DNA from: Streptomyces leeuwenhoekii
GTDB taxonomy: Bacteria > Actinomycetota > Actinomycetes > Streptomycetales > Streptomycetaceae
DNA: 64,000 nt
Direction of reading: 5' to 3'
Assembly (NCBI RefSeq): GCF_001013905.1
Contig: NZ_LN831790.1
Coordinates: 992,001-1,056,000, forward strand
Shown here: piece by piece, positions 24,710-41,503 of the stretch
Layout: every line of letters starts with the position of its first letter
Numbering within the stretch: the stretch's first letter is position 1
The notes under the pieces: generated by a model
What the model saw: only the letters and a program-made list of their open reading frames with translations
The model's database searches: none
Told to the model about the DNA's origin: nothing
Translations under genes and position numbers: made by a program

Positions 24710-25025
24710 CGTTGTTTTCCTCTCGTCCAGGAGGCGTTCCCTGGAGGGGATCAGGTCGGGGTCCCCGGCTCGGCGAGCGGGTGCCGGGAGCTCGGGGGGA
24801 GACCGGGCCCGTGCGGCTCGTGCGGCTCGTGCGGCTCGGCCCGGTGATGCGCTAGACGCTAGGGACCCGCCCCAATCCAGTCAACAGTTTTGTCAACAAT
24901 CTCATCGACAATCGAGACAGGTGGGCACATGTGCCCCTCCCCCGCGCCGGGGCACGCGTCCGCGTGCACGAAGGGGCGGGCGGCGCACGGGCGTGCGCGG
25001 CCCACCCCGCTGTTTCCGGCTGTCG
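24710..25025. promoter_or_regulatory. Intergenic with GntR-type operator candidate
   Basis: This gap lies between the AAHS transporter start and the 3' end of the dioxygenase gene. An AT-rich patch at 24,880-24,916 contains TTTTGTCAACAATCTC (24888-24903) and a second ACAATC half-site. It shares the TTGTNNACAATCT pattern with the gntR upstream region (29,503-29,516), suggesting common control. The rest is GC-rich filler with a tandem GTGCGGCTC repeat at about 24,811-24,840. Confidence 0.55.
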
Positions 25026-25976
25026 TCAGGCCACCGGTGGCGTGCCGTGGGTGTGGAAGGACTCGATGGTCCTCAGGCCCCACGCCTGGCCCTTGGCGCG
25101 CTCGGCCTCGGTCCAGGTGATCAGCGGCCAGTCGGGGGCCAGCACCAGCCGGGTGAGCGGGTTGCACAGCTCGATGCGGTTGCCGCCCGGCTCGTAGACG
25201 TACAGGAAGAAGGTCTGCTGGATGGCGTGCTTGTGCGGGCCGGTCTCGATGAACACACCGGTGTCGATGGCGAGGTCGGCGGCGCGCAGGATGTCCTCGC
25301 GGGTGTCGGCCGCGAAGGCGATGTGGTGCAGGCGGCCCGAGGAGCCGGTCCAGTCCTCGGTGTAGACGACGTCGTAGGACTTGTCGGTGAACGTCAGCCA
25401 GCGGGCGGCGATCCTCCCGCTGTCCAGCCGGATCTGCTCGGTCGGCCGGGCGCCCAGGAGGTGTTCCTGGAACTCGGCGTTGGCGAGCACGTCGGCGGCG
25501 AGGAAGTTGACGTGGTCCAGACGGCGCACTCCCACGCCCCGGTTGGGTTTGGCCTGCGGCTGGTTCTTCAGCGCGGGCCGCAGTTCGTCGGGTGCCCGGT
25601 AGTGCTCGCTCTCCCAGTACAGGGCGTGCTCGTGACCGTCGGGGTCGGTGGTGACGTAGAGCTTGCCGATGCCCGGCTCGTCCTCGACCCACCGGCCCGC
25701 GCGGCCCGCCTCCTCCAGGGCCGCCACGCGGCGCTGGAGGGCCTCCTCGCTGGAGGTGCGCAGGGCGAGCCGGCCCAGGCCGGGTTCGGCGCGGGCGGTG
25801 AGCACCAGGCTGTGGTGCTCGTAGTCGTCGTAGGTGCGCAGGTGGACGCTGTCGCCCTGGCTGCCGTTGACGGTCAGGCCCAGGTAGTCGGTGAAGAAGG
25901 CGACCGACGCGTCCAGGTCGGGCGTGAACAACTGGGCGTGGCCGATGTGGGCGATGTCACCGAGTGGCGGAGTCAT
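25026..25976 (-). CDS. Type I extradiol (catechol 2,3-dioxygenase-like) ring-cleavage dioxygenase
   Basis: A 316-residue two-module VOC dioxygenase. The active module shows all non-haem iron ligands of XylE-type enzymes: His155 in LDHVNFLAADV, the His217/His218 pair in RLHHIAFAAD, and Glu269 in GGNRIELCNP, with Tyr261 before it. The N-terminal module (HIGHAQLFTPDLDASVAFFT) is structural. It would cleave a catecholic ring next to the diol using Fe(II) and O2. It is the last gene of the galB-galC-galD-like operon, overlapping galD by 20 bases, which predicts a carboxylated catechol (gallate or protocatechuate) or a downstream triol as substrate. Typical gallate dioxygenases belong to a different family. 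Confidence 0.88.
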   Translation of the reverse strand: MTPPLGDIAHIGHAQLFTPDLDASVAFFTDYLGLTVNGSQGDSVHLRTYDDYEHHSLVLTARAEPGLGRLALRTSSEEALQRRVAALEEAGRAGRWVEDEPGIGKLYVTTDPDGHEHALYWESEHYRAPDELRPALKNQPQAKPNRGVGVRRLDHVNFLAADVLANAEFQEHLLGARPTEQIRLDSGRIAARWLTFTDKSYDVVYTEDWTGSSGRLHHIAFAADTREDILRAADLAIDTGVFIETGPHKHAIQQTFFLYVYEPGGNRIELCNPLTRLVLAPDWPLITWTEAERAKGQAWGLRTIESFHTHGTPPVA

Positions 25977-27084
25977 CGTTGTCTCCAGAGGGTTGTGCGG
26001 GGGTCGGCGCCGTCCCGGCCGACCGGGGGAAGACGGTGCCGTCGAAGATCTTCCGTGCGGTGCGCACGACGGCGGTGCGGCGCACGGTGGGCGGGGTGTC
26101 GCCGGGTCCGGGGTCGACGGAGGTCTCCACCTCCAGGAACCCGGTGGGGTGTTCGACGCGGACGCGGTCGCCGGGTGCGGGGAGCCGGGCGATCCCCTCC
26201 CCCACCCCTCGGGGGACGAGCAGCCCGGCCGCCACGCTCGCGGCTCCCAGGACGCCGATGGAGGTGTGGCAGCGCACCGGGATGAAGGTGCGGGTGGTGA
26301 CCGCGCCGCCGTGCCGGGGCGGCGCGAGCAGGCTGAGTTTGGGGACGGTGGCGTGCTCGACGTCGCCGAGGCCCATCAGCCGGCCGGCCTCCAGGCGGAT
26401 CTCCCGCAGGCGGTCGGCCAGGGCCGTGTCCTCCTCAAGGTCCCGGGGGTCCTCGTAGCCGGTGACCTTCAGGGACCGGGCGGGGATCAGCACGGTCGGC
26501 ATCCCGTTGTCGACGCAGGTCACCTCCGTCCCGGCGGCGGTGTCCCGGGCCCTTCCGGTGGGCAGCAGGGGTCCGCTGCCGGGCGGGAACTCGATGACGA
26601 CCGCGGCGGCCGTGCCCGGCACGCCCGATATCTCCGCGGAGCCGGTGTAGTCGACGCGTCCGCCGGGGGTGGGGAAGGTCGCGACGGCGAGTTCCCCGGT
26701 GTTGCGCATGCGGATGCGTACGGAGGTCTCGCCGTCCCCGGCGGCCACCAGTCCGCGTTCGACGGCGAAGGGGCCGACCCCGGCGAGGATGTTTCCGCAG
26801 TTCTGGCGGTCGGTCACCTCCGGCCGCTCGAGGCCGACTTGCAGGAAGAGGTAGTCGACATCGGCCTCGGGGTCGGCCGAGGCGGAGACCACCGCGACCT
26901 TGCTGGTCAGCGGGTGGGCCCCGCCCAGGCCGTCGATCTGGCGCGGGTCGGGGCTGCCCATGATCCGCAGCAGCAGCCCGTCGCGGGCGGCCGGGTCGGC
27001 GGGCAGGTCCCCGGCCAGGAAGTAGGCGCCCTTGGAGGTGCCGCCGCGCATGAGCATGCAGCGCACCTCCGCGGGCCCGGTCAC
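25957..27084 (-). CDS. galD: 4-Oxalomesaconate tautomerase-like PrpF-family protein
   Basis: A 375-residue diaminopimelate-epimerase-fold enzyme of the PrpF/GalD family. It opens MTGPAEVRCMLMRGGTSKGA, the typical PrpF start, and has the paired active-site regions DRQNCGNILAGVGPFAVERG and VRCHTSIGVLGAASVAAG, each with one cysteine. GalD interconverts tautomers of 4-oxalomesaconate after ring cleavage of gallate. The genes for the hydratase and aldolase of the same pathway overlap or adjoin it, which supports GalD rather than PrpF (methylaconitate isomerase). It starts within the stop codon of the aldolase gene (ATGA overlap). Confidence 0.85.
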   Translation of the reverse strand: MTGPAEVRCMLMRGGTSKGAYFLAGDLPADPAARDGLLLRIMGSPDPRQIDGLGGAHPLTSKVAVVSASADPEADVDYLFLQVGLERPEVTDRQNCGNILAGVGPFAVERGLVAAGDGETSVRIRMRNTGELAVATFPTPGGRVDYTGSAEISGVPGTAAAVVIEFPPGSGPLLPTGRARDTAAGTEVTCVDNGMPTVLIPARSLKVTGYEDPRDLEEDTALADRLREIRLEAGRLMGLGDVEHATVPKLSLLAPPRHGGAVTTRTFIPVRCHTSIGVLGAASVAAGLLVPRGVGEGIARLPAPGDRVRVEHPTGFLEVETSVDPGPGDTPPTVRRTAVVRTARKIFDGTVFPRSAGTAPTPAQPSGDNDDSATR

Positions 27085-27791
27085 GGCCGCTCCCCGTCGC
27101 GGGTGTACGTCTCCCAGGTCTGGTACGTCACGCCCAGCTCCGCGAGCTTCTCGCGCAGCCCGTAGCGGTCCAGGCCCAGTTGGCCCTCGAGGAAGGCGGC
27201 GCGGGTGGCGGCCTCCTTGCGCTCGCGGGCCTCGGACGCCTCGGCGGCCTGCCGGGCCCGCTCGCGGGGGACGACCACCACGCCGTCGTCGTCGGCGAGG
27301 ACGACGTCACCGGGGCGGACGACCTGTCCGCCGATCACCACGGGGACGTTGACCGAGCCGCCGGTGGCCTTGACGGTGCCCTGCGCCGACACGGCGGCCG
27401 ACCAGACCGGGAAGCCCATGGCGCGCAGTTCGGCGGTGTCCCGGACGCCCGCGTCGATGACCAGTCCGCGCACGCCGCGCTGCTGGAGGGCGGTGGCGAA
27501 CAGCTCGCCGAACATGCCGTCGGTGGAGGGCGAGGTGGTGGTGACGACCAGGATGTCACCCTCGCCGCACTGCTCGACGGCGGCGTGGATCATGAGGTTG
27601 TCGCCGGGCCAGGACAGCACGGTCACCGCGGTGCCCGCGATCCGCGTGTCCTGCTGGACGGGGCGCAGCCGGCTGCCGAGCAGTCCGGTGCGGCCCATCG
27701 CCTCGTGCACGGTGGCGACGCCGTACCCGGCGAGCGCCTCGACGTCCTTCGGGTCGGCCTTCGGGGGCCCGGTGACGATCACGCCGCTCAT
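27081..27791 (-). CDS. galC: 4-Carboxy-4-hydroxy-2-oxoadipate aldolase/oxaloacetate decarboxylase (RraA-like)
   Basis: A 236-residue RraA-fold class II pyruvate aldolase. GYGVATVHEAMGRTGLLGSR, GDNLMIHAAVEQCGEGDILV and the active-site block VIDAGVRDTAELRAMGFPVW (Arg-Asp for pyruvate and metal binding), then GDVVLADDDGVVVVPRE, match LigK/GalC. It would split 4-carboxy-4-hydroxy-2-oxoadipate into pyruvate and oxaloacetate. The C-terminal extension ending TWETYTRDGERP is characteristic of the aldolase rather than the RNase E inhibitor. It overlaps its neighbours by four bases on both sides, giving tight translational coupling. Confidence 0.88.
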   Translation of the reverse strand: MSGVIVTGPPKADPKDVEALAGYGVATVHEAMGRTGLLGSRLRPVQQDTRIAGTAVTVLSWPGDNLMIHAAVEQCGEGDILVVTTTSPSTDGMFGELFATALQQRGVRGLVIDAGVRDTAELRAMGFPVWSAAVSAQGTVKATGGSVNVPVVIGGQVVRPGDVVLADDDGVVVVPRERARQAAEASEARERKEAATRAAFLEGQLGLDRYGLREKLAELGVTYQTWETYTRDGERP

Positions 27792-28579
27792 GCCAGCTCC
27801 TTGGCGACCTGCGGGTAGGGACGCATGTACGCCTCGGCCATGGTCTTGTGCGGCAGGCCCAGGTTGGGTCCGGCGTTGCGCTTGAGCTGGACGCCGCGGC
27901 GCACGGCGAGGTCGGTGTAGTAGTCCCACAGGTGCTGCTGGGCGGCGAGGCACTCCATCGCCTTGCGCTTGGTCTCCCACACCTCGGTGATGTCGAGCAG
28001 CACCTCGGGCCTGAAGCCGCTCATCTCGGGCTGGTGCGGCTCGAAGTAGAAGACGGGCGGGGCGCCGATGATCTCGCCGGGGCCGGGGTAGCCGATGGCC
28101 TGGGCGAGGACCCGGGCCTCCAGGGCCATGCGGTTGGCGGCCGGGTGGTCGCCGTTGTACGGATCCTCGGTGGGGTGGGTGAGCACCACGTCGGGCTGGG
28201 TCTCGCGGTAGACGGCGACGAGCCGGTCGGTCAGCTCGGCGGTGGGGATCAGCGGGTAGTCGCCCGCGTCGAAGAAGCGGACCTCGGCGCCCAGCGTGGC
28301 GGCGGCCTTCTCGGCCTCCTCCCGGCGGATCGCCTTGATCTCCTCCAGCTTCCTGCCCTCCCGCCAGGCCCTGGCGGACTCGCCGCGCTCGCCGAAGGTC
28401 AGGCACGCGATGGTCACCTTCTCCCCGCGCGCCGCGGCCAGGGCGATGGCTCCGCCCGCCCGCCACACGAAGTCCCCCGCGTGCGCGGTGACCACGAGGG
28501 TGGACCGCGGGGGTGTCGGGGGTTCCGCCTGGTCGAGCGAGGCCGAGGGCCCGGGAGCGGGCGCGTTGCCGTACGTCAT
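27788..28579 (-). CDS. galB: 4-Oxalomesaconate hydratase (PIG-L/LmbE fold)
   Basis: A 263-residue zinc enzyme. The PIG-L metal motif AHPDD is replaced by VVTAHAGDFVWRAGGAIALA, close to the form I recall for GalB hydratases. The second metal region is VLTHPTEDPYNGDHPAANRM. GalB adds water to 4-oxalomesaconate to give 4-carboxy-4-hydroxy-2-oxoadipate. I chose the ATG at 28579, preceded by AAGGAG, over a longer frame of low-complexity sequence. It is the first gene of the operon galB-galC-galD-dioxygenase, with ATGA overlap to galC, and lies downstream of the gntR gene on the same strand. Confidence 0.9.
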   Translation of the reverse strand: MTYGNAPAPGPSASLDQAEPPTPPRSTLVVTAHAGDFVWRAGGAIALAAARGEKVTIACLTFGERGESARAWREGRKLEEIKAIRREEAEKAAATLGAEVRFFDAGDYPLIPTAELTDRLVAVYRETQPDVVLTHPTEDPYNGDHPAANRMALEARVLAQAIGYPGPGEIIGAPPVFYFEPHQPEMSGFRPEVLLDITEVWETKRKAMECLAAQQHLWDYYTDLAVRRGVQLKRNAGPNLGLPHKTMAEAYMRPYPQVAKELA

Positions 28580-28801: not shown

Positions 28802-29452
28802 TCAGTCGCGCAGCGCCTCGATCACGCAGGTGAGGTGGGCGCGGACGGCCGCTTCGGCCGCCTGCGGGTCCCTGGCCCTGATCGCCTCGATCATGGCCAG
28901 GTGCTCGTTCAGGGATTGCTGGGGACGCCCGGGGCGCAGCGCCAACTGGAAGCGGTGGCGCACCAGTTGGGCGTTGAGCCGTTCCAGCAGCTCCACGGCC
29001 GTCCGCTGGCCGGAGAACTCCCGGATCCGGGTGTGCAGTTCGTGGTTGAGGTCGGAGTAGGTCAACGGCTCGCCGCCGGCCACCGCCTTGCCCATCGCCT
29101 CGCCCAGTGCGGTCAGTTCGTCCAGTTGCTCGTCGCTGGCCGCGACGGCCGCCTTGGCCGCGCACAGCCCTTCGAGGACCATGCGGCACTCGGTGATGGC
29201 GACCGCTTCCTCCACGGTCACCACCCGCACCCGCGAGCCGCGGTTGCGGATCCGCTCGACCAGACCCTGCGCCTCCAGATCGATCAGCGCGGCCCGGATG
29301 CTGGCCCGTGTCACACCGAACTGCTCGGCGAGCTCGTTCTCCACCAGCCGCTGGGCCGGCGCCATCTCGCCGCGCAGGATCGCCTGCCGCAACTGCGCGA
29401 GCGCATGCTGCTTGGCCTGCTCTCCGGTGCTCGGACGGGCTTGTTCCGGCAT
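28802..29452 (-). CDS. GntR family (FadR subfamily) regulator of the gal-like operon
   Basis: A 216-residue repressor. Residues 12-75 are the GntR winged helix (ALAQLRQAILRGEMAPAQRL, VENELAEQFGVTRASIRAAL, IDLEAQGLVERIRNRGSRVR). Residues 85-210 form the all-helical FCD ligand domain; Asp/His residues in TYSDLNHELHTRIREFSG and SLNEHLAMIEAIRARD fit the metal/carboxylate site. A GGGAGG site precedes the ATG at 29452. It lies immediately before galB on the same strand with a 220-base gap. The operator motif upstream recurs at the AAHS transporter promoter. A pathway acid is the likely inducer. Confidence 0.9.
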   Translation of the reverse strand: MPEQARPSTGEQAKQHALAQLRQAILRGEMAPAQRLVENELAEQFGVTRASIRAALIDLEAQGLVERIRNRGSRVRVVTVEEAVAITECRMVLEGLCAAKAAVAASDEQLDELTALGEAMGKAVAGGEPLTYSDLNHELHTRIREFSGQRTAVELLERLNAQLVRHRFQLALRPGRPQQSLNEHLAMIEAIRARDPQAAEAAVRAHLTCVIEALRD

Positions 29453-29502
29453 TCGTGCCCTCCCTGAGTGAGTGCCTGTCGAACGTAAATCTAGCCAAAC
29501 AA

Positions 29503-29516
29503 GATTGTCAACAATT
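29503..29516. promoter_or_regulatory. GntR operator candidate upstream of gntR
   Basis: GATTGTCAACAATT contains the inverted repeat ATTGT-CA-ACAAT (29504-29515), a FadR-type half-site arrangement in an AT-rich island between gntR and the divergent GNAT gene. Read on the minus strand it gives TTGTNNACAATCT, also present near 24,890. Confidence 0.6.
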
Positions 29517-29625
29517 TTGTTCGCCAAAATGCTTCCGCTCGCACCGGAGCGGACGGCGCTCGCCGCGCCGCCCGTGAGAAGATCACCCGGCGGTCCGCAC
29601 CCGTCGGACGACATGGAGGGCGATC

Positions 29626-33391: not shown

Positions 33392-33676
33392 ATGGCCCCG
33401 TCAGCCCCGCCCGTCGGCCCCGCGGCGCCGGGCCGCGACGGAGTCCATGCCTACCCCGTCCGGTTCCCGCGTATCCACGGCGAGGGAACGGACGGAGGAA
33501 TGCCCCCGGCGCGCGGCCCGCGCCCCGCGCTCCTGGCGGGAAGAACCCCTCGGCGCGCCAACGGCGGCCCCGCCACCCGCCGCCCCGCCCGCTCCCCGGT
33601 CCGCACCGGCCGGTGCGGACCGCCCGCCGCTCCGCGCCGCCGACGTGAGCCCCTCACCGAACGGAGCCTGTCGTGA
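33392..33676 (+). CDS. Doubtful 94-residue ORF coupled to the aldolase gene
   Basis: An ATG with a GAGGAG site eight bases upstream opens a 94-codon frame whose TGA overlaps the GTG of the next gene (GTGA). That arrangement suggests translational coupling. Against it, the product is arginine/proline/alanine-rich with no pattern, and the next gene has its own GGAG site. It may be an untranslated leader that happens to be open. Listed because it fills a 345-base gap after a strong promoter. Confidence 0.3.
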   Translation: MAPSAPPVGPAAPGRDGVHAYPVRFPRIHGEGTDGGMPPARGPRPALLAGRTPRRANGGPATRRPARSPVRTGRCGPPAAPRRRREPLTERSLS

Positions 33677-34560
33677 GCATCAGCATCCCCGACCTCACCA
33701 CGGTCAGAGCCCGGTACCCGGAGGCGATCGCCGAAGCGGCCTGGCGCCGGGCGCGGCGCCCGCTGATCGGCGACGAGGGGCGCCTGATGATCGTGGCCGC
33801 GGACCATCCCGCGCGCGGCGCCCTCCGCGTCGGCGACCGGCGCCTGGCCATGGCCAACCGCACCGATCTGCTGGAGCGCCTGTGCACCGCGCTGTCGCGC
33901 CCCGGTGTCGACGGGGTGCTGGCCACCGCGGACGTCCTGGAGGACCTGCTGCTGCTCGGCGTCCTGGACGGCAAGGTCGTCATGGGCTCGATGAACCGCG
34001 GCGGCCTGGCGGGCGCCGCCTTCGAGATGGACGACCGCTTCACCGGCCACCGCGCCGAGGACATCGCCCGGCTCCGTTTCGACGCGGGCAAGCTGCTGCT
34101 GCGCATCGACTACGACGACCCCGGCTCGCTGGCCACCCTGGAGTCCGCCGCCCGCGCCGTCGACGCGATGGCCGCCCGCCGGCTGCCGGTGTTCGTCGAG
34201 CCCTTCCTGTGCCGCAGGATCGAGGGCCGGGTCCGCACCGACCTGTCCGCCGAGGCCGTCACCCGCTCCATCGCCATCGCCTCGGGCCTCGGCGGCACCT
34301 CCGCCTACACCTGGCTGAAGCTGCCGGTCACCCGCGACCCCGACGACATGGCGGAGGTCCTGGAGACCTCCACGCTGCCCGCCGTCCTGCTGGGCGGTGA
34401 CGTCGGCGGCGCGGACGGCGACCAGGAGGGCGCCTACGAGCGCTGGCGCAAGGCCCTGCGGCTGCCCACCGTACGCGGCCTGGTCGCCGGCCGCTCGCTG
34501 CTCTACCCGGCCGGAGGCACTGTGGAAGAGGCGGTCGACACGGCCGTCGGCCTGCTGTGA
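33673..34560 (+). CDS. Cgl0159-type (beta/alpha)8 aldolase of inositol catabolism
   Basis: A 295-residue TIM barrel related to class I aldolases. LMIVAADHPARGALRVGDRR is the signature start of the barrel; LLRIDYDDPGSLATLESAAR, LPVFVEPFLCRRIEGRVR and SAYTWLKLPVTRDPDDM give later strands, where the lysine of WLKLP is the likely Schiff-base residue. Proteins of this type sit in actinobacterial iol operons and are thought to cleave the 6-phospho-5-dehydro-2-deoxygluconate intermediate (IolJ role). GTG start with GGAG site. First recognised gene of the rightward operon. Confidence 0.82.
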   Translation: MSISIPDLTTVRARYPEAIAEAAWRRARRPLIGDEGRLMIVAADHPARGALRVGDRRLAMANRTDLLERLCTALSRPGVDGVLATADVLEDLLLLGVLDGKVVMGSMNRGGLAGAAFEMDDRFTGHRAEDIARLRFDAGKLLLRIDYDDPGSLATLESAARAVDAMAARRLPVFVEPFLCRRIEGRVRTDLSAEAVTRSIAIASGLGGTSAYTWLKLPVTRDPDDMAEVLETSTLPAVLLGGDVGGADGDQEGAYERWRKALRLPTVRGLVAGRSLLYPAGGTVEEAVDTAVGLL

Positions 34561-34610
34561 CCCCCCCCCCGCGCAGCGACGGACCAGCCCGCCGCGACCA
34601 GGAGGCACCG

Positions 34611-35510
34611 ATGACCAGCCCGTACCACCTTCCCGCCGGCCGGGCGGCCACCGGCCCGTACGCCGTGGACATCAGCCCCGAGACGGCCGGCTGGGGCTAC
34701 TGCGGCCTGCGCGTCCTGGACCTGCCGCCCGGCGGCACGCACACCTTCGCCACCGGCGAGAGCGAGTGGCTCGTCCTGCCGCTGAGCGGCGGCTGCACCG
34801 TCACCGCCTCCGACGACTTCGGCCATGACACCTTCGAACTCACCGGCCGCGCCGATGTGTTCAGCGCCGTCAGCGACTTCGCCTACGTCCCGCGCGACGC
34901 CCGCGCCACGATCGGCTCCCCCGGCGGCGGGCGGTTCGCGCTCGCCGGCGCCCGCTGCACCCGCCGCCTGCCCACCCGCTACGGCCCGGCCTCCCGGGTC
35001 CCCGTGGAGCTGCGCGGCACCGGCAACTGCTCCCGCCAGGTCAACAACTTCGGCGCGGCGGACGTCTTCGCCTGCGACCGGCTGATCGCGGTGGAGGTGA
35101 TCACCCCGGGCGGCAACTGGTCGTCGTTCCCGCCGCACAAGCACGACGAGCACCGGCCCGGCGAGGAGTCCGTCCTGGAGGAGATCTACTACTTCGAGTT
35201 CGCCGGCCACGAGGGCGTCCCCGGCCTCGGCTACCAGCGGGTGTCGCCGTCCGGGCGGGGCCGGGGCACGGACGTCCTGGCCGAGGTGCGCGCCGGGGAC
35301 GCCGTGCTGATACCCGACGGCTGGCACGGGCCGTCGATGGCGGTGCCCGGCCACGACATGTACTACCTCAACGTCATGGCGGGCCCGGACCCCGAGCGTG
35401 CCTGGCTGATCCGCGACCACCCCGACCACGCCTGGATCCGCGCCACCTGGCCGGACCTGCCGGTCGACCCCCGCCTGCCCCTCTACACCGCACCCGAGAG
35501 GCCCGCATGA
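34611..35510 (+). CDS. iolB: 5-Deoxy-glucuronate isomerase
   Basis: A 299-residue bicupin. The metal site in the second cupin is clear: GGNWSSFPPHKHDEHRPGEE (HKHDE) followed by EEIYYFEF, and VLIPDGWHGPSMAVPGHDMY closes the barrel; these match IolB of Bacillus and Streptomyces. The enzyme isomerises 5-deoxy-D-glucuronate to 5-dehydro-2-deoxy-gluconate in myo-inositol degradation. It starts at the ATG at 34611 after CAGGAGG. Its last codons overlap the iolD start (ATGA), so the two are translationally coupled. Confidence 0.95.
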   Translation: MTSPYHLPAGRAATGPYAVDISPETAGWGYCGLRVLDLPPGGTHTFATGESEWLVLPLSGGCTVTASDDFGHDTFELTGRADVFSAVSDFAYVPRDARATIGSPGGGRFALAGARCTRRLPTRYGPASRVPVELRGTGNCSRQVNNFGAADVFACDRLIAVEVITPGGNWSSFPPHKHDEHRPGEESVLEEIYYFEFAGHEGVPGLGYQRVSPSGRGRGTDVLAEVRAGDAVLIPDGWHGPSMAVPGHDMYYLNVMAGPDPERAWLIRDHPDHAWIRATWPDLPVDPRLPLYTAPERPA

Positions 35511-37378
35511 GCGCTCCCACCCGCCGACTGACCACCGCCCAGGCCCTGGTGCGGTTCCTGTCCGCCCAGTACACCGAGCGGGACGGCGTACGCCACCGCC
35601 AGATCGCCGGCGTCTGGGGCATCTTCGGCCACGGCAACGTGGCCGGGATCGGGCAGGCGCTCGTCGAGCACGGCGAGGCGATGCCGTACCACCAGGGCCG
35701 CAACGAGCAGGCGATGGTGCACGCGGCCGTCGGCCACGCCCGCCACCTCGACCGCCTGTCCGCGCAGGCCGTGACGACGTCCATCGGCCCGGGCGCCACC
35801 AACCTCGTCACCGGCGCCGCCCTCGCCACCATCAACCGGCTGCCGGTCCTGCTGCTGCCCGGCGACGCCTTCGCCGCCCGCCCCTGCGATCCGCTGCTCC
35901 AGCAGCTCGAGCACCCGACCGAGGCGGACGTGTCGGTCAACGACACCCTGCGCCCGGTCTCCCGCTTCTTCGACCGGATCACCCGTCCCGAGGCCCTGAT
36001 CCCCGCCGCGCTGAACGCCATGCGGGTGCTCGCCGACCCCGCGGAGACCGGCGCCGTCACCCTCGCACTCCCCCAGGACGTGCAGACCGAGGCGTACGAC
36101 TGGCCGGAGCGGTTCTTCGCCGAGCGCGTCTGGCCGGTCCGGCGGCCCGCGCCCGACCCGGCGGAGCTGGCCGGGGCCGTGCGGGCGGTCCGGGCCGCGC
36201 GGCGCCCGCTGATCGTCGCGGGCGGCGGTGTCCACCACAGCCGGGCCGAGGACGCGTTGAAGGCGCTGGCCGACGCCACCGGCATCCCGGTCGCCGTCAC
36301 CCAGGCCGGCAAGGGCGCGCTGCGCCACGACCACCCCGCCGACCTCGGCGGCATCGGGCACACCGGCACCGCCGTCAGCGACGACCTGGCCCGCACCGCG
36401 GACCTGGTGATCGGCGTCGGCACCCGCTTCACCGACTTCACCACCGCCTCCGGCACCCTCTTCCAGCACCCGGAGGTCCGCTTCCTCAACCTCAACATCA
36501 CCGCCTTCGACGCCCACAAGCTCGCCGCGCGCACCCTGGTCTGCGACGCGCGGGCGGGGCTCACGGCGCTGGCCGGCGCGCTCGCCGGCCACCGGGTGGA
36601 GCCGTCCTACGAGGCCGAGTACCGCGCCGGCAAGGAACGCTGGGAGCGGGTGGTCGAGGCCGCCTTCCACGCCGCCGACGACACCGCCGTGCCGACGCAG
36701 ACCCAGGTGCTGGGCGCGCTGGACGCGGTCGTGGGCGAGGAGGACGTGGTGATCAACGCGGCCGGTTCGCTCCCCGGCGACCTGCACAAGCTGTGGCGGG
36801 CCCGGTCCCGGCGCCAGTACCACCTGGAGTACGGCTACTCCTGCATGGGCTACGAGATCCCGGCCGCGCTCGGCGTCCAGCAGGCCGCCCCCGGCACGCC
36901 CGTGTGGGCGCTGGTGGGCGACGGCACCTACCTGATGATGCCGACGGAGATCGTCACCGCCGTGCAGGAGAACCTGCCGGTGAAACTGGTCCTGGTCCAG
37001 AACCACGGCTACGCCTCCATCGGCGGCCTGTCGGAGGCGGTCGGCGCGGAGCGGTTCGGCACGGCCTACCGCCACCGCGCCGCCGACGGCACCTTCACCG
37101 GCCCCCCGCTCCCCGTCGACCTCGCCGCCAACGCCGCCAGCCTCGGCATGGAGGTGCTGCGCGCCAAGACCGTGCGGGAGCTGCGCGAGGCACTGGCCGC
37201 GGCGCGCGCCGCCGACCGTCCCACCTGCGTCTACGTGGAGACCGACCCCGCGCCGACCGCTCCCGGGGCGCAGGCGTGGTGGGACGTGCCGGTCGCCGAG
37301 GTGTCCGGCCGGGAAGCCGCCGCGGCCGCGCGCGCACGCTACGAGGAGCAGGCCGCCACCCGCCGCCGCCATCTGTGA
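35507..37378 (+). CDS. iolD: 3D-(3,5/4)-trihydroxycyclohexane-1,2-dione hydrolase (ThDP-dependent)
   Basis: A 623-residue thiamine-diphosphate enzyme with the usual three domains. The catalytic glutamate is Glu67 in YHQGRNEQAMVHAAVGHA. The central domain includes RRPLIVAGGGVHHSRAEDAL. The ThDP/Mg motif is WALVGDGTYLMMPTEIVTAV ending QNHGYAS (GDG...N). It hydrolytically opens the trihydroxycyclohexanedione ring to 5-deoxy-glucuronate, substrate of the coupled IolB. Length fits IolD (about 620-640). Genes iolC, iolA and a clear iolG are not in the window, so the pathway is split. Confidence 0.95.
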   Translation: MSAPTRRLTTAQALVRFLSAQYTERDGVRHRQIAGVWGIFGHGNVAGIGQALVEHGEAMPYHQGRNEQAMVHAAVGHARHLDRLSAQAVTTSIGPGATNLVTGAALATINRLPVLLLPGDAFAARPCDPLLQQLEHPTEADVSVNDTLRPVSRFFDRITRPEALIPAALNAMRVLADPAETGAVTLALPQDVQTEAYDWPERFFAERVWPVRRPAPDPAELAGAVRAVRAARRPLIVAGGGVHHSRAEDALKALADATGIPVAVTQAGKGALRHDHPADLGGIGHTGTAVSDDLARTADLVIGVGTRFTDFTTASGTLFQHPEVRFLNLNITAFDAHKLAARTLVCDARAGLTALAGALAGHRVEPSYEAEYRAGKERWERVVEAAFHAADDTAVPTQTQVLGALDAVVGEEDVVINAAGSLPGDLHKLWRARSRRQYHLEYGYSCMGYEIPAALGVQQAAPGTPVWALVGDGTYLMMPTEIVTAVQENLPVKLVLVQNHGYASIGGLSEAVGAERFGTAYRHRAADGTFTGPPLPVDLAANAASLGMEVLRAKTVRELREALAAARAADRPTCVYVETDPAPTAPGAQAWWDVPVAEVSGREAAAAARARYEEQAATRRRHL

Positions 37379-37406: not shown

Positions 37407-38303
37407 TCAGCGCACCCGGCTCCCGGCCTCCGGCGTGGTGCGCGGCGACACCGCGGCGCGCGCGAACTCCAGGGTCGCGGCGAAGACGCGCGCCACGTCC
37501 TCCTCGGCCGCCCCGATCCAGAGGTGGTCGGCCCCGGGGACGGGACGGAAGTCCGCCTCGGCGCCCGCCGCCCGGAGCGCCGCGGCCAGGGCCCGGCCCT
37601 GGGTGACGGGTATGACCGTGTCCCGCGTGCCGTGCAGGATCAGGAAGGGCGGCGCGTCGGCGGTGACGCGGGCGACGGGGCTGGCGGCCCGGGCCCGCTC
37701 GGGGGCGTCGGCGGCCGGGGCCCCGATCAGCGCCGCCTCCGGGGTGCGCGGCGGCGCGGCGGTGAGGTCGGCGGCGCCGTACCAGACGACGCAGCCGCTC
37801 ACCGCCGGGCCCGCGGTGAGGGCGAGCAGGGCGGCGAGGTGCCCGCCCGCCGACTCGCCCCAGGTGACCACGCGGTCGGCGGCCAAGCCCAGTTCGGCGG
37901 CGCGGACGCGCAGCCAGCCCAGCATCTCGGTGAGGTCGTCCAGCGGGGCGGGGAAGACGGCCTCACCGCTGAGCCGGTAGTCGGGGCAGACGACGGCGAA
38001 CCCGGCCCGGGCCAGGCGGGCGAAGGGCCCCGGGCGCCAGGCGCGCAGGCGTGGTCCCGCGTCGTCGCGCAGCCCGGTGCGCCAGGCACCGCCGTGGACG
38101 AAGACGAGCACGGGCAGCGGGCCGCCGGCCGGCTCCTCGGGCAGCCACAGGTCGAGCTCCAGGGGACGGCTGCCGTCGCGGACGGCGTAGGGGACGGCCC
38201 GCAGCAGCCGTATCCCCTCGGCGGGGCGGGCGGCGGGCGGCAGCGGAAGGACCGCGGGGTCGGGCGGGGCGAGGAACGCGGCGAGGTCGGGGTGCGGGGG
38301 CAC
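37407..38303 (-). CDS. Alpha/beta hydrolase, HSL/esterase-lipase type
   Basis: A 298-residue cytosolic esterase. LPVLVFVHGGAWRTGLRDDA is the oxyanion-hole HGG motif, RVVTWGESAGGHLAALLALT the GxSxG nucleophile, FLILHGTRDTVIPVTQGRAL the acid and VPGADHLWIGAAEED the histidine. All four elements are intact. It is transcribed leftward after the amidohydrolase gene with a 71-base gap, and both lie behind the quercetinase gene. An aryl-ester or depside hydrolase for the quercetinase product is plausible but not shown by sequence. Confidence 0.87.
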   Translation of the reverse strand: MPPHPDLAAFLAPPDPAVLPLPPAARPAEGIRLLRAVPYAVRDGSRPLELDLWLPEEPAGGPLPVLVFVHGGAWRTGLRDDAGPRLRAWRPGPFARLARAGFAVVCPDYRLSGEAVFPAPLDDLTEMLGWLRVRAAELGLAADRVVTWGESAGGHLAALLALTAGPAVSGCVVWYGAADLTAAPPRTPEAALIGAPAADAPERARAASPVARVTADAPPFLILHGTRDTVIPVTQGRALAAALRAAGAEADFRPVPGADHLWIGAAEEDVARVFAATLEFARAAVSPRTTPEAGSRVR

Positions 38304-38374
38304 GAAGGCTCCTCGGGAGTCGGGGGCGCGGATCGGGGCTCGGGGTTCCGGGCTCGGGGTTCCGGGGCCGGGGC

Positions 38375-39349
38375 TCAGCGGGCGAGGCGGCGGGGCAGCA
38401 GCCGGCGGGCGTTGGCCGTGGTCAGGGACTGCCAGCTCGCGCCCTCCACCGGGACGGGGGCGGCGGTGACGGAGGCGATGTGGGCGTCGACACCGTGCTC
38501 CGGGGTCCAGCAGTAGTCGCTGCCGTACAGCAGCCGCTCGGGGCCGACGAGACCGAGCAGGGCGGGCACCTGACGCGGGAAGGCGGGGCCGGCCATGTCG
38601 TAGTGCAGGCGGCGCAGTTGCTCCACCGCGTCGGGGGCGGTGGCTCCCTCCTGGGCCAGGAAGAGCTTCATGAAGCCGTTGAGGCGGTCGGCGAGCACCG
38701 GCAGGGCGCCGCCGCAGTGCGGGACGATGACCTCCAGGCCCGGATGGCGTTCGAGGGTGCCCGCCATGAGCAGGTCGGTGACGGTGCGGGCGGTGTCGAA
38801 GACGAACTCGACCATCGGGCGCGGCCGTCCGAGGGCCGACCGCTCCCAGCAGACGGGCGAGGTCGGGTGCAGGAAGACCACGGCGCGGCGGCGGCCGAGT
38901 TCGGCGAGGACGGGCTCCAGGCGCTCGTCGCCCAGGTACACGCCGTGGGTGTTGGTCTCCAGCACCACGCCGTCCGCGCCCAGTTCGTCGAAGGCGTACG
39001 CGATCTCCGTCAGGGCGCCGTCCACGTCGGGCAGCGGGAGCGAGGCGAAGAAGCCGAAGCGGCCGGGGTGGTCGGCGGCGACGCGGGCGGCGTCCTCGTT
39101 CACCTCGCGGGCCAGGCGCCGGGCCGCGGCGTCGTCGCCGAAGTGCACGCCGGGCGAGGAGACGGACAGGAACGAGGTGCCGATGCCGTTGCGGTCCATC
39201 AGCTCCAGATGGGCCGCGGCGGACCAGCCGGGCCAGGCCGGCATGCCGTCCGGCAGCTCATGGCCGGCGGCCCGCGCCTGCCGGACGTAGGAGTCGGTGA
39301 CGAAGTGGGCGTGGACGTCGACGAAGCCGGGGGTCTCGGGCACGGTCAT
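38375..39349 (-). CDS. Amidohydrolase-2 family protein (ACMSD/resorcylate-decarboxylase-like)
   Basis: A 324-residue TIM-barrel metalloenzyme. The HxH metal pair is GFVDVHAHFV (His13, His15); further ligands are the His of EVIVPHCGGALPVLADRLN and the Asp of RLLYGSDYCWTPE. LHYDMAGPAFPRQVPALLGL is the usual pre-SD segment of the decarboxylase subgroup. Members decarboxylate aromatic or muconate carboxylic acids (ACMSD, gamma-resorcylate and methylsalicylate decarboxylases). Beside a quercetinase the likely substrate is a trihydroxybenzoate, inferred from context only. LigI-type lactonases are an alternative in the same superfamily. Confidence 0.83.
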   Translation of the reverse strand: MTVPETPGFVDVHAHFVTDSYVRQARAAGHELPDGMPAWPGWSAAAHLELMDRNGIGTSFLSVSSPGVHFGDDAAARRLAREVNEDAARVAADHPGRFGFFASLPLPDVDGALTEIAYAFDELGADGVVLETNTHGVYLGDERLEPVLAELGRRRAVVFLHPTSPVCWERSALGRPRPMVEFVFDTARTVTDLLMAGTLERHPGLEVIVPHCGGALPVLADRLNGFMKLFLAQEGATAPDAVEQLRRLHYDMAGPAFPRQVPALLGLVGPERLLYGSDYCWTPEHGVDAHIASVTAAPVPVEGASWQSLTTANARRLLPRRLAR

Positions 39350-39433
39350 GGGGTTCCTTCCTCGGGGGGCGTGGGGTCCGCGTCGGTGGCCGGGCGACGG
39401 CCCGGCCGGGCGGCCGGGTGGCGGCGCGCCGGT

Positions 39434-39459
39434 GGGGGCCCTGCCAGGGCAGGGCCCCC
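39434..39459 (-). terminator. GC hairpin downstream of the quercetinase gene
   Basis: GGGGGCCCTGCC (39434-39445) and GGCAGGGCCCCC (39448-39459) pair perfectly. It sits 17 bases after the queD stop and may separate queD from the amidohydrolase gene or attenuate read-through. Confidence 0.65.
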
Positions 39460-39475
39460 GGGGGACGGCACCGGA

Positions 39476-40030
39476 TCAGCTCTGCGTGCGCCACTGGTGG
39501 TCGGGCAGGAAGGTCACGTCGTACTGCTGCGGCACGGTGGCGAACTTCTGCGGCGCGGGCACGTACGGCTGCCGCGGCAGGCCGAGCTCCTCGGTGGCGG
39601 TGCCGAGGGTCTCGAAGAACCGCTCGAAGGTGCCGCCGGGACCGGCGGCGACGCCGACGACCTGGCTGTGGTGGCGCTCGATGCGGTAGGCGTGCGGGCA
39701 GTTCTTCGGTACGAAGCCGAAGTCGCCGGAGGTCAGCAGCTTCTCCTGCTGCTCGCCCTCCAGGTCCTCCACGAACAGCCGGACGGCGCCCTGGGTGACG
39801 TAGAAGACCTCGTACGTGTTCGGGTGGGAATGGGCGGGGATGATGTTGCCCTTGGGGCCCTCGACGGTGAAGAAGTTGAAGCTGTTCTCGGTCTGCGGGC
39901 CGCCCGCGTAGACGGTCACCAGGTCGGTGAAGAGGTGGGCGCGGTCTCCCATCCCCTTGTCGATGAAGTACGGCTTGCCAGGTTCGGCGGGGATGTGGGA
40001 GTGGGGGCGCCGGGCGAATTCGATGGTCAT
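39476..40030 (-). CDS. queD: Quercetin 2,4-dioxygenase-like monocupin
   Basis: A 184-residue single cupin, the size of Streptomyces quercetinase. Metal ligands are His67, His69 and Glu74 in IIPAHSHPNTYEVFYVTQG and His113 in GDFGFVPKNCPHAYRIE, the three-His-one-Glu set of nickel/cobalt quercetinases. Known enzymes of this type oxidatively open the heterocyclic ring of flavonols, releasing CO and a depside. The N-terminal RPHSHIPAEPGKPYFIDKGM also fits that family. The gene is divergent from a MarR gene across two 15-bp palindromes, indicating substrate-induced expression. A related cupin with another substrate cannot be excluded. Confidence 0.8.
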   Translation of the reverse strand: MTIEFARRPHSHIPAEPGKPYFIDKGMGDRAHLFTDLVTVYAGGPQTENSFNFFTVEGPKGNIIPAHSHPNTYEVFYVTQGAVRLFVEDLEGEQQEKLLTSGDFGFVPKNCPHAYRIERHHSQVVGVAAGPGGTFERFFETLGTATEELGLPRQPYVPAPQKFATVPQQYDVTFLPDHQWRTQS

Positions 40031-40054
40031 GGGGGGCCTCCGACGGATCGCGAT

Positions 40055-40095
40055 GTCAGGTAGCCTGACTTTTGATGGTTGTCAGGCTACCTGAC
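40055..40095. promoter_or_regulatory. Two 15-bp palindromes forming a larger inverted repeat (MarR operator)
   Basis: GTCAGGTAGCCTGAC (40055-40069) and GTCAGGCTACCTGAC (40081-40095) are exact inverted copies around an 11-bp AT-rich spacer, and each arm is itself GTCAGG-N3-CCTGAC. The array lies just upstream of queD and 94 bp before marR. Two MarR dimers could bind side by side, one helical face apart (26 bp between centres). Confidence 0.8.
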
Positions 40096-40188
40096 GATCA
40101 AGGGAAGGCAACCCCCTCGGCCGGAACCGGAGCCGACGGGCCGGTCAGGAGCCCGCCCGTATGCTCGTGACCCGAGGAACGAGGAGCC

Positions 40189-40632
40189 ATGACCGAACCC
40201 GCATCCAACCTGCCCCTGCTGCTGGCCGGCGCCAAGCGCTGGTTCGACGACGCGCTGACGGCCAGCATGCGGGCGGCCGGCGAGCAGCCGCTGACCAGCG
40301 CCCAGGGCCAGGTCTTCGCCTTTGTGGACCCGGAGGGCACCACGGTCGCCGAGCTGGCGCGCCGCCTCGGCGTCACCCGGCAGACGGCGCACCAGGCCGT
40401 GCACGGCCTGCTCACCCTCGGCCTGCTGGAGCAGGTCCCGGACCCCGCCTCGGCCCGCAACCGCCTGATACGCATCACGGCGGAGGGCGCCCGGGTCCAC
40501 CGCCGCGCCCAGGCCACCCTCACCGTCATCGAGGGCGCCCTCGCCGACCGCATCGGCAAGGAGGCCGCCGCCGCCCTGCGCCACGCGCTGACGCTGCCGC
40601 GCGGGGAGCCGCCGGTGGTGGAGGCCCCCTGA
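40189..40632 (+). CDS. MarR family regulator, divergent from queD
   Basis: A 147-residue winged-helix regulator. The HTH spans residues about 35-80 (PLTSAQGQVFAFVDPEGTTV, AELARRLGVTRQTAHQAVHG, LLTLGLLEQV), followed by the wing ASARNRLIRITAEG. A GAGGAG site precedes the ATG. MarR proteins often sense phenolics; the double palindrome between it and queD is the likely operator, so flavonols or their products are candidate ligands. The wing lacks the usual DRR triplet (reads SARNR), so the call rests on overall layout. Confidence 0.85.
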   Translation: MTEPASNLPLLLAGAKRWFDDALTASMRAAGEQPLTSAQGQVFAFVDPEGTTVAELARRLGVTRQTAHQAVHGLLTLGLLEQVPDPASARNRLIRITAEGARVHRRAQATLTVIEGALADRIGKEAAAALRHALTLPRGEPPVVEAP

Positions 40633-40689: not shown

Positions 40690-41503
40690 GGTGCCGCTGA
40701 CGACGAAGTGCGCCCTGGCGCACCTCATCGTGCCCGACAGGCGGCGCTGCGCCGGGGTGAACAGCGGCTCGGCCGCCGGGTCCTCGAAGAGGTACGGGAG
40801 GTCGCCCGCGTGGAAGGCGCCGAAGTCGAACGCGCCCGGCAGCGGCAGGAACACGGGCGCGTCGCGGTCGGCGAACTCGTACGCGTACACCGGGACGTAT
40901 CGCGCGAGGGCGTCGTCGGGTATCCCGGCATGTCCGGGCCCATGGCGCGGGCCGGCATGTCCGTCATGGCCTCGCCGCTGGCCATGACGCCCCGGTGGAA
41001 CAGGCCCTTGGACGCGGGTGACGTCAGGTGCGCGGCGATGGCGGACGCGCCGAAGGAGACCCCGGCGACGGTGACGTTGCCGGGGTCGCCGCGAAGGCCC
41101 TCGCGTTCTTGCGCACCCAGGACAGGGCGGCCCACTGGCCCTGCAAACCGAAGGTGCCGGCCCCGTCGAGGCCCGGCAGGGCCAGGCCGTCGAAGGCGCC
41201 GAGACGGTAGTTGGGGGTGACCACCACCAGGTCCCGGCCGGCCAGGCGGCGCCCGTCGAAGAGGGAGCCGCCGCCCACGGCGCCGTCCCCGTGGATCCAC
41301 ACGAGCACGGGCAGACCCCGCCGCCGGTCCGCGACCGGCGGGGCCGTGACGTTCAGGACCGGGCAGTTCTCCTCCGTGCTGGAGATCGGCGCGTACGGGG
41401 AGGGCACCTGCGGGCACAGCGGCCCCGGCTCGGTGGCGTCCCTGACCCCCTTCCGTCCGGCCGGGCACGGGGGGCGCGGCATGTCCCTGTGTCCGAACGG
41501 CAC
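40690..41503 (-). pseudogene. Type-B carboxylesterase, frameshifted and internally deleted
   Basis: Three minus-strand frames assemble into one carboxylesterase. The N-terminal frame has LPVLVWIHGDGAVGGGSLFD (oxyanion hole) and LVVVTPNYRLGAFDGLALPG. After a frame change near 41,090 comes GDPGNVTVAGVSFGASAIAA with the nucleophile GxSxG, to GVMASGEAMTDMP. After another break near 40,910 comes VYAYEFADRDAPVFLPLPGA and GDLPYLFEDPAAEPLFTPAQ from the C-terminal third. The segment between the last two parts (acidic residue region) is missing. The total is about 270 codons against about 500 normally. It probably acted with queD's neighbours once, or is an unrelated relic. Confidence 0.75.

What the first reader, a model, noticed from the sequence alone, without database searches (positions are those of the whole stretch)
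37407..40632. Candidate flavonol-degradation unit: quercetinase, decarboxylase-like amidohydrolase and esterase under one MarR
A monocupin with the three-His-one-Glu site and size of Streptomyces quercetinase is followed in the same direction by an ACMSD/resorcylate-decarboxylase-like amidohydrolase and an HSL-type esterase. Quercetinase gives a depside; an esterase could split it to protocatechuate and 2,4,6-trihydroxybenzoate, and the amidohydrolase could decarboxylate the latter to phloroglucinol. Seen: gene order, motifs and palindromic control region. Known: quercetinase chemistry. Inferred: the two later steps. I do not know of a described queD operon of this composition.
Basis: partly seen in the sequence, partly recalled or inferred. 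Interest (0 to 1): 0.72.

Follow-up and report, generated by a model that had tools for sequence, protein, structure and literature searches.

The report
Flavonol-breakdown gene cassette in Streptomyces
A soil bacterium carries a small switch-controlled gene set that probably opens plant flavonols such as quercetin and splits the product in two; comparison with relatives suggests that the set is the front end of a breakdown pathway rather than a lone detoxifying enzyme.

Summary
A Streptomyces-type quercetinase (QueD), an Amidohydro_2 protein (AHY) and a BD-FAE-type esterase (EST) lie in one direction, with a divergent MarR and a double palindrome. From recall, amidohydrolase and carboxylesterase genes after queD were reported for strain FLA in 2007 and read as 'not a catabolic cluster'; that paper could not be opened.

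Comparison argues against that reading (80 queD loci). Where called, the order is queD, AHY, EST. EST is found in 47 of 70 testable loci, AHY in 21; 20 of the 21 also have EST. All 53 loci with a MarR homologue carry GTCAGGNNNCCTGAC (at most one mismatch) before queD; all 16 with an AraC-type gene lack it.

In four relatives queD lies within 10 kb of phloroglucinol-pathway-like genes; the three of these without AHY carry a gamma-resorcylate-decarboxylase-like gene.

New: two tiny DUF1427/XapX genes follow queD in 23 of 80 loci.

Limits: the window lacks the XapX pair, has a hairpin there, and its genome has no detected phloroglucinol ring-opening genes, so phloroglucinol may be a dead end here.

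The parts
39476..40030 (-). queD: monocupin quercetin 2,4-dioxygenase, 184 aa, metal ligands H67, H69, E74, H113
   Evidence: single match in the genome
38375..39349 (-). AHY: Amidohydro_2 (ACMSD/gamma-resorcylate/isoorotate decarboxylase-like), proposed 2,4,6-trihydroxybenzoate decarboxylase; H13, H15, H161, H211, D278
37407..38303 (-). EST: BD-FAE-type alpha/beta hydrolase, proposed depside hydrolase; HGGAW at 70, GESAGG at 149, GADHLW at 257
40189..40632 (+). MarR-family regulator, divergent from queD
   Evidence: conserved beside queD
40055..40069 (.). operator copy 1, GTCAGGTAGCCTGAC
40081..40095 (.). operator copy 2, GTCAGGCTACCTGAC, reverse complement of copy 1
39434..39459 (-). hairpin with an 11-bp perfect stem and 4-nt loop between queD and AHY; possible terminator or attenuator, no T-run; the 23 relatives checked have stems of at most 9 bp there

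Best explanation
This is a MarR-controlled flavonol-degradation unit. QueD opens the C ring of quercetin-type flavonols to CO and a depside. EST hydrolyses the depside to protocatechuate and 2,4,6-trihydroxybenzoate. AHY decarboxylates 2,4,6-trihydroxybenzoate to phloroglucinol. MarR represses the unit by binding GTCAGGNNNCCTGAC between queD and marR and is released by a flavonol or a product. Shown here by sequence: the families, the conserved order, and the operator tied to MarR. Established elsewhere: QueD chemistry and quercetin induction in strain FLA (PMC4416304, passages). Inferred: the substrates of EST and AHY, MarR binding and its inducer. In this genome protocatechuate can probably enter the pca pathway (a pcaH homologue is present); phloroglucinol is probably excreted or used by an unknown route.
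Against: No activity or expression data. 20 of 70 loci have queD with neither AHY nor EST, so queD can act alone. DPGC has no match in the own genome and TAL one weak match, E 9e-4. DPGC is rare in the genus, 2 of 392. The AHY family also exists without queD: 11 of 295 genomes hold a 70-73% relative and no queD. A strong hairpin lies between queD and AHY. [quoted passage not shown] The 80 loci are the best 80 of 131, mostly Streptomyces, and not independent. The queD-linked AHYs group with only moderate support (75/90).
Confidence: 0.6

Rival explanations
1. Detoxification only: the unit destroys antibacterial flavonols; EST and AHY merely finish clearing the product, and no carbon is gained from the A ring. 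The chemistry may be the same; the physiological role differs.
For: [quoted passage not shown] 20 of 70 loci keep queD without EST or AHY. The own genome lacks a detected phloroglucinol ring-opening route. AHY is decayed in L016, L051 and L055.
Against: queD lies beside ring-opening phloroglucinol-pathway-like genes in four relatives; an AHY step is not needed for detoxification alone; pcaH is present for the B ring.
Confidence: 0.3
2. Different division of labour: EST acts before QueD, on acylated or ester-bound flavonols, or AHY acts on the depside itself, by decarboxylation or hydrolysis, instead of on free 2,4,6-trihydroxybenzoate.
For: BD-FAE esterases as a family act on plant ester-linked phenolics (family name, activity recalled). 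The same fold also houses the hydrolase LigY (its activity recalled).
Against: EST follows queD without AHY in 26 loci, AHY without EST in 1, which fits EST acting second and AHY third. Known decarboxylases outrank LigY and LigJ in the fold comparison. A gamma-RSD-like gene is present in the phloroglucinol-linked loci that lack AHY.
Confidence: 0.2
3. AHY and EST belong to an unrelated route and only sit beside queD by inherited synteny.
For: AHY relatives at 57-73% identity lie away from queD in the 18 stretches fetched. The window has a hairpin between queD and AHY.
Against: Same order in many different flanking contexts; 8 of 8 close AHY orthologues lie within 0.71 kb of queD; the queD-linked AHYs fall on one side of a branch, though with moderate support, 75/90.
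Confidence: 0.06

Closest known systems
queD locus of Streptomyces sp. FLA (Merkens et al. 2007; recalled, paper not held)
   Same: Monocupin nickel quercetinase; amidohydrolase and carboxylesterase genes reported downstream (recalled). The proxy locus L055 (S. eurythermus) has a QueD identical to FLA's at 183 of 186 positions, the operator before queD and a MarR after EST.
   Different: In the window MarR is divergent and next to queD, the operator is doubled, and AHY is intact, whereas L055's AHY is decayed. The state of FLA's own AHY was not seen.
Reductive phloroglucinol pathway cluster of Clostridium scatologenes (PMC10470551: abstract, sections 7, 12, 13 and passages)
   Same: Relatives L009, L019, L037 and L064 carry the same families beside queD: SDR, cyclase, 3-hydroxyacyl-CoA-dehydrogenase-like, BKACE; L009, L037 and L064 also an MFS transporter.
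   Different: Reported there in anaerobes and various other bacteria; Streptomyces occurs in that text only in a reference title; no quercetinase link in the parts read; DPGC and TAL not found in the window genome.
Gamma-resorcylate / isoorotate / ACMSD decarboxylases (Amidohydro_2)
   Same: AHY fold; HxH, a His aligned with IDCase H195 and an Asp aligned with D323.
   Different: AHY is 19-27% identical to the characterised decarboxylases listed; substrate untested; no NCBIfam hit at E 0.001.
Bacillus subtilis QdoI/YxaG bicupin quercetinase
   Same: Flavonol dioxygenase cupin; matches window QueD, E 1e-36 to 2e-35.
   Different: Bicupin; its regulators are LmrA and QdoR of the TetR family (recalled), not MarR.

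Membership tests
Streptomyces monocupin quercetinase (QueD) | Single cupin of about 186 aa, homologous over its full length to FLA QueD | tested here: met
   residues 1-183 aligned, E 8e-101; 79% identity to L055 QueD, which is 183 of 186 identical to 5fli
Streptomyces monocupin quercetinase (QueD) | 3His/1Glu metal site | tested here: met
   H67, H69, E74, H113 read directly; the FLA glutamate is E76 (PMC4416304, passages)
Streptomyces monocupin quercetinase (QueD) | 2,4-dioxygenolysis of quercetin with CO release | not testable with these tools
   needs an assay
Amidohydro_2 aromatic decarboxylases | Amidohydrolase fold of this subgroup | tested here: met
Amidohydro_2 aromatic decarboxylases | Metal-site His and catalytic Asp | tested here: met
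   H161, H211 and D278 invariant in 25 sequences; H13-x-H15 present in the window; aligned to IDCase; roles of the residues recalled
Amidohydro_2 aromatic decarboxylases | Decarboxylation of a hydroxybenzoate | not testable with these tools
   needs an assay
BD-FAE esterase | PF20434 over its cut-off, nucleophile and oxyanion motifs | tested here: met
   147 bits against 26.8; S151 in GESAG, H260 and HGG 70-72 invariant in 20 sequences
BD-FAE esterase | Hydrolysis of an aryl ester or depside | not testable with these tools
   needs an assay
MarR-operator control of queD | Conserved operator that tracks the MarR gene | tested here: met
   53 of 53 MarR loci, 9 of 27 without; 16 of 16 loci with the AraC-type cluster lack it
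MarR-operator control of queD | Binding and release by a flavonol | not testable with these tools
   needs EMSA and a reporter
Reductive phloroglucinol pathway (window genome) | DPGC and TAL present | tested here: not met
   no DPGC match; TAL only a 30% match over residues 17-99 at E 9e-4
queD cassette with XapX pair (window) | Two DUF1427 genes after queD | tested here: not met
   no PF07235 match in G000; tblastn of the L001 protein on the window found nothing below E 2; queD-AHY gap is 126 nt

The most novel reading that the evidence does not exclude
The window holds a reduced form of a modular flavonol-mineralising system of aerobic actinomycetes: QueD, a dedicated pair of XapX/DUF1427 micro-membrane proteins (a flavonol or phenolate transporter, the first function for that family), a depside esterase, an interchangeable trihydroxybenzoate decarboxylase (AHY or a gamma-RSD type), and in some strains the reductive, classically anaerobic phloroglucinol pathway to acetoacetate, with the queD part switched by a dedicated MarR.
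Probability: 0.35. Interest if true: 0.8.

Novelty: new variant of a known kind. Interest (0 to 1): 0.6.

Why it matters
It turns an old reading (quercetinase not in a catabolic cluster, recalled; regulatory mechanism elusive, PMC4416304 passages) into directly testable claims: a 15-bp operator, a named regulator, and two enzyme steps with stated substrates and products. It also proposes how the A ring of flavonols could be consumed by aerobic soil bacteria, and gives a lead for DUF1427/XapX, flagged in 2005 as a plant-association domain of unknown function (PMC554113, passages).

Tried and rejected
Rejected: 'L054 shows the XapX pair under its own MarR operator'. On reading the DNA the XapX-like pieces follow a remnant of a second queD copy, so it is no independent regulon. 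Rejected: a wider MarR regulon in the own genome; with up to one mismatch there are 20 sites against 17 for the reversed control, and the third exact site lies inside a small secreted-protein ORF (chaplin-like by eye). The 17 one-mismatch sites were not examined one by one. Rejected: the gamma-RSD-like gene as generally queD-linked; relatives at 46-62% identity occur in 24 of 295 genomes, and the queD/phloroglucinol-linked type (76% or more to L009) in none of the 295. Rejected: using the 11 genomes with a 70-73% AHY as support; they lack queD and have other neighbours. The XapX protein had no match in plasmids. Sigma-70-type promoters: none found, uninformative for this GC content.

Literature: searches (all 10 allowed) of the held open library. 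In the listings (one search listed none) no title or shown start of an abstract describes a queD-amidohydrolase-esterase operon or a queD-phloroglucinol link. I opened parts of only four papers (PMC4416304, PMC554113 and PMC6479552: passages; PMC10470551: abstract, sections 7, 12, 13 and passages), so this is weak evidence of absence, and subscription papers are not held.

Weak points of method: genes in loci were called by my own codon-score script. EST/AHY/regulator counts use tblastn at 45% identity (AraC 40%); 'full' means 80% of the query covered, not proven intact, and EST of L020, L064 and L075 is covered in two frames. 10 of 80 loci with under 3.5 kb downstream were left out of the EST/AHY counts and 2 more out of the regulator count. 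The 76% cut for AHY orthologues was set after seeing the hits. Genome searches score a capped number of candidates (7 for AHY and the gamma-RSD type), so weaker relatives may be missed. The AraC family was checked for one of the 16 loci (L012). Contexts are joined by two shared gene clusters, so short loci count as contexts of their own. Fisher tests (AHY with EST P 0.0014; operator with MarR P 1e-11) ignore relatedness. My first count of 'pairs' counted domain hits; one search recounts them as separate places.
Full report
WHAT IS THERE. QueD (39476-40030, -) is a full-length relative of the crystallised Streptomyces sp. FLA quercetinase (5fli/5flh, E 8e-101) with the 3His/1Glu site at H67, H69, E74 and H113. 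AHY (38375-39349, -) is Amidohydro_2. EST (37407-38303, -) is best described as BD-FAE, not strictly HSL. MarR (40189-40632, +) is divergent. The genome, 8.1 Mb, has one queD match. Between queD and marR lie two 15-nt sites, 40055-40069 and 40081-40095, exact reverse complements of each other.

PRIOR KNOWLEDGE. From recall only: Merkens et al. 2007 (Arch Microbiol 187:475) named an amidohydrolase and a carboxylesterase downstream of queD in strain FLA and concluded that queD is not part of a catabolic cluster. The paper is not held; its reference is listed in PMC4416304. [quoted passage not shown] So the composition is probably not new; its meaning is open.

CONSERVATION. 131 related stretches were found in the genome collection and the best 80 kept (L001-L080; mostly Streptomyces, with a few Nonomuraea, Actinomadura, Kitasatospora and Kineosporia). 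Of 70 loci with at least 3.5 kb after queD, EST is full (80% covered) in 47 and partial in 1, AHY full in 21 and partial in 2; 20 have both full, 26 EST without AHY, 1 AHY without EST (L019), 20 neither. Three of the 47 EST are covered in two frames. Order and strand are the same wherever the genes were called. By shared flanking genes the 81 loci, window included, fall into 48 contexts; AHY occurs in 12, EST in 29, both in one locus in 11. This overcounts, because 19 of the 80 loci have under 8 kb on one side. The iol genes beside the window unit recur at L001, L003, L004 and L006.

AHY IS TIED TO queD AT HIGH IDENTITY. In an even draw of 295 genomes of the genus, QueD (E 1e-60 or better) is in 40 and AHY relatives (E 1e-60 or better) in 48. 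The 8 genomes with AHY at 76% or more all have it within 0.71 kb of queD. The next 11, at 70-73%, have no queD and lie in other surroundings. A tree of 43 proteins puts the 23 queD-linked AHYs on one side of a branch, support 75/90, so moderately.

REGULATION. The motif GTCAGGNNNCCTGAC lies within 250 nt upstream of queD in 53 of 53 loci with a MarR homologue (44 divergent upstream, 9 downstream; 50 exact, 3 with one mismatch) and in 9 of 27 without one; 5 of those 9 (L025, L026, L051, L053, L054) end within 1.3 kb after queD. A gene cluster that is AraC-type in L012 (HTH_18) occurs beside queD in 16 loci, and all 16 lack the motif. Of 68 loci with enough sequence, 47 have MarR, 15 the AraC type, 6 neither, none both. 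The own genome has three exact motifs: two here, one inside a small secreted-protein ORF; sites with up to one mismatch are little more frequent than in the control (20 against 17) and were not examined singly. This points to a regulator dedicated to queD. L055 (S. eurythermus), whose QueD differs from FLA's at 3 of 186 positions, has MarR after EST and the motif before queD, which suggests where FLA's missing regulator may lie; FLA itself was not examined.

LINK TO PHLOROGLUCINOL. Within 10 kb of queD in L009, L019, L037 and L064 lie an SDR, a 3-hydroxyacyl-CoA-dehydrogenase-like protein, a PF04199 cyclase, a small cupin, a BKACE and an IclR regulator. These enzyme families are those of the C. 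scatologenes phloroglucinol pathway reconstituted in vitro (PGR, TfD, DPGC, TAL; PMC10470551: abstract, sections 7, 12, 13 and passages). The SDR's only solved relatives at E 1e-40 are 5g4k/5g4l, which I recall to be phloroglucinol reductase; the listing names them only as SDR oxidoreductase. L009, L037 and L064 add an aromatic-acid-type MFS and an amidohydrolase whose best solved match is gamma-resorcylate decarboxylase 3s4t/4qro, E 3e-81. L069, cut by its contig end, shows the IclR, MFS and decarboxylase only. All four loci with this decarboxylase lack AHY in the stretch held; L019 has AHY and lacks the decarboxylase. So of 5 genomes in which the cyclase gene was seen, 4 have the gamma-RSD type without AHY beside queD and 1 has AHY without it. 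The cyclase is rare: 1 of 295 and 2 of 392 (overlapping draws). Both of those genomes have queD, G006 at 3.8 kb; G006 is not independent of L019. I take this as the best, still indirect, support for phloroglucinol as the product.

XapX PAIR. 25 of 80 loci have DUF1427/XapX-like genes after queD; 23 have two separate good places, the first starting within about 55 nt of the end of queD, and L002 and L067 have one. In L001 they are 48 and 77 aa with overlapping stop and start. 15 of the 20 AHY+EST loci are among the 23. In 295 genomes PF07235 matches 12 at E 0.001 and passes its cut-off in 9; in 6 of these two copies lie directly beside queD; the other 3, and the 3 below the cut-off, have no queD hit. 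The one other place among the 80 loci, in L054, follows a queD remnant. PMC554113 (2005, passages) lists DUF1427 as a domain of unknown function in plant-associated bacteria. A transporter role is my conjecture from size, hydrophobicity and place.

THE WINDOW ITSELF. It lacks the XapX pair; the 126-nt gap holds a hairpin with an 11-bp perfect stem, z -2.6 for the gap; 23 relatives have stems of at most 9 bp in the first 150 nt after queD. DPGC has no match in the genome, and TAL only a weak one (the DPGC query does match other genomes). A pcaH homologue passes its family cut-off at C3:1397568. The likely outcome here is protocatechuate to the pca route and phloroglucinol as an end product; both are inferred.

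VERDICT. Interest comes from the comparative findings more than from the window alone.

Noticed in passing
window 23357-28495 (-), regulator 28802-29614 (-): Aromatic ring-cleavage cluster: PcaK-type transporter, an extradiol dioxygenase just under the catechol 2,3-dioxygenase cut-off (316 against 320 bits), 4-oxalomesaconate tautomerase, 4-carboxy-4-hydroxy-2-oxoadipate aldolase, a PIG-L/BshB1-like protein (perhaps a GalB-like hydratase) and a GntR-type regulator (some names by eye). Looks like a gallate-type pathway with an unusual dioxygenase; myricetin would give gallate. Its genes at 26002-28495 had no counterpart among called genes near queD in the 80 loci.
   Followed up: partly
L001:10563-10939 and 24 other queD loci: DUF1427/XapX micro-membrane protein genes directly after queD, two in 23 loci, one in 2.
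   Followed up: partly
L055:10594-11394, L016:10626-10944, L051:10614-10910: AHY copies after queD are decayed (pieces in different frames or with a large gap), suggesting repeated loss.
   Followed up: partly
L054:8940-9520: Remnant of a second queD copy followed by XapX-like pieces, next to a full-length queD.
   Followed up: partly
window 40725-41503 (-): Pieces of a carboxylesterase-like gene spread over different frames beside marR, seen by eye; looks decayed.
   Followed up: no
window 33673-37378 (+): Inositol catabolism genes: Cgl0159-like protein, iolB, iolD.
   Followed up: no
L098-L108, around 8-10 kb: Sister AHY group (70-73%) in 11 large genomes without queD, in 10 of 11 beside an antiporter-like, a dehydrogenase-like and a carboxymuconolactone-decarboxylase-like protein (names of the neighbours by eye).
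   Followed up: no
L013, L017, L020, L028, L034, L035: first 150 nt after queD: A recurring 8-9 bp hairpin, GGTGCGGG...CCCGCACC, in AraC-type loci; it overlaps the XapX-coding stretch, so it may be only coding sequence.
   Followed up: no
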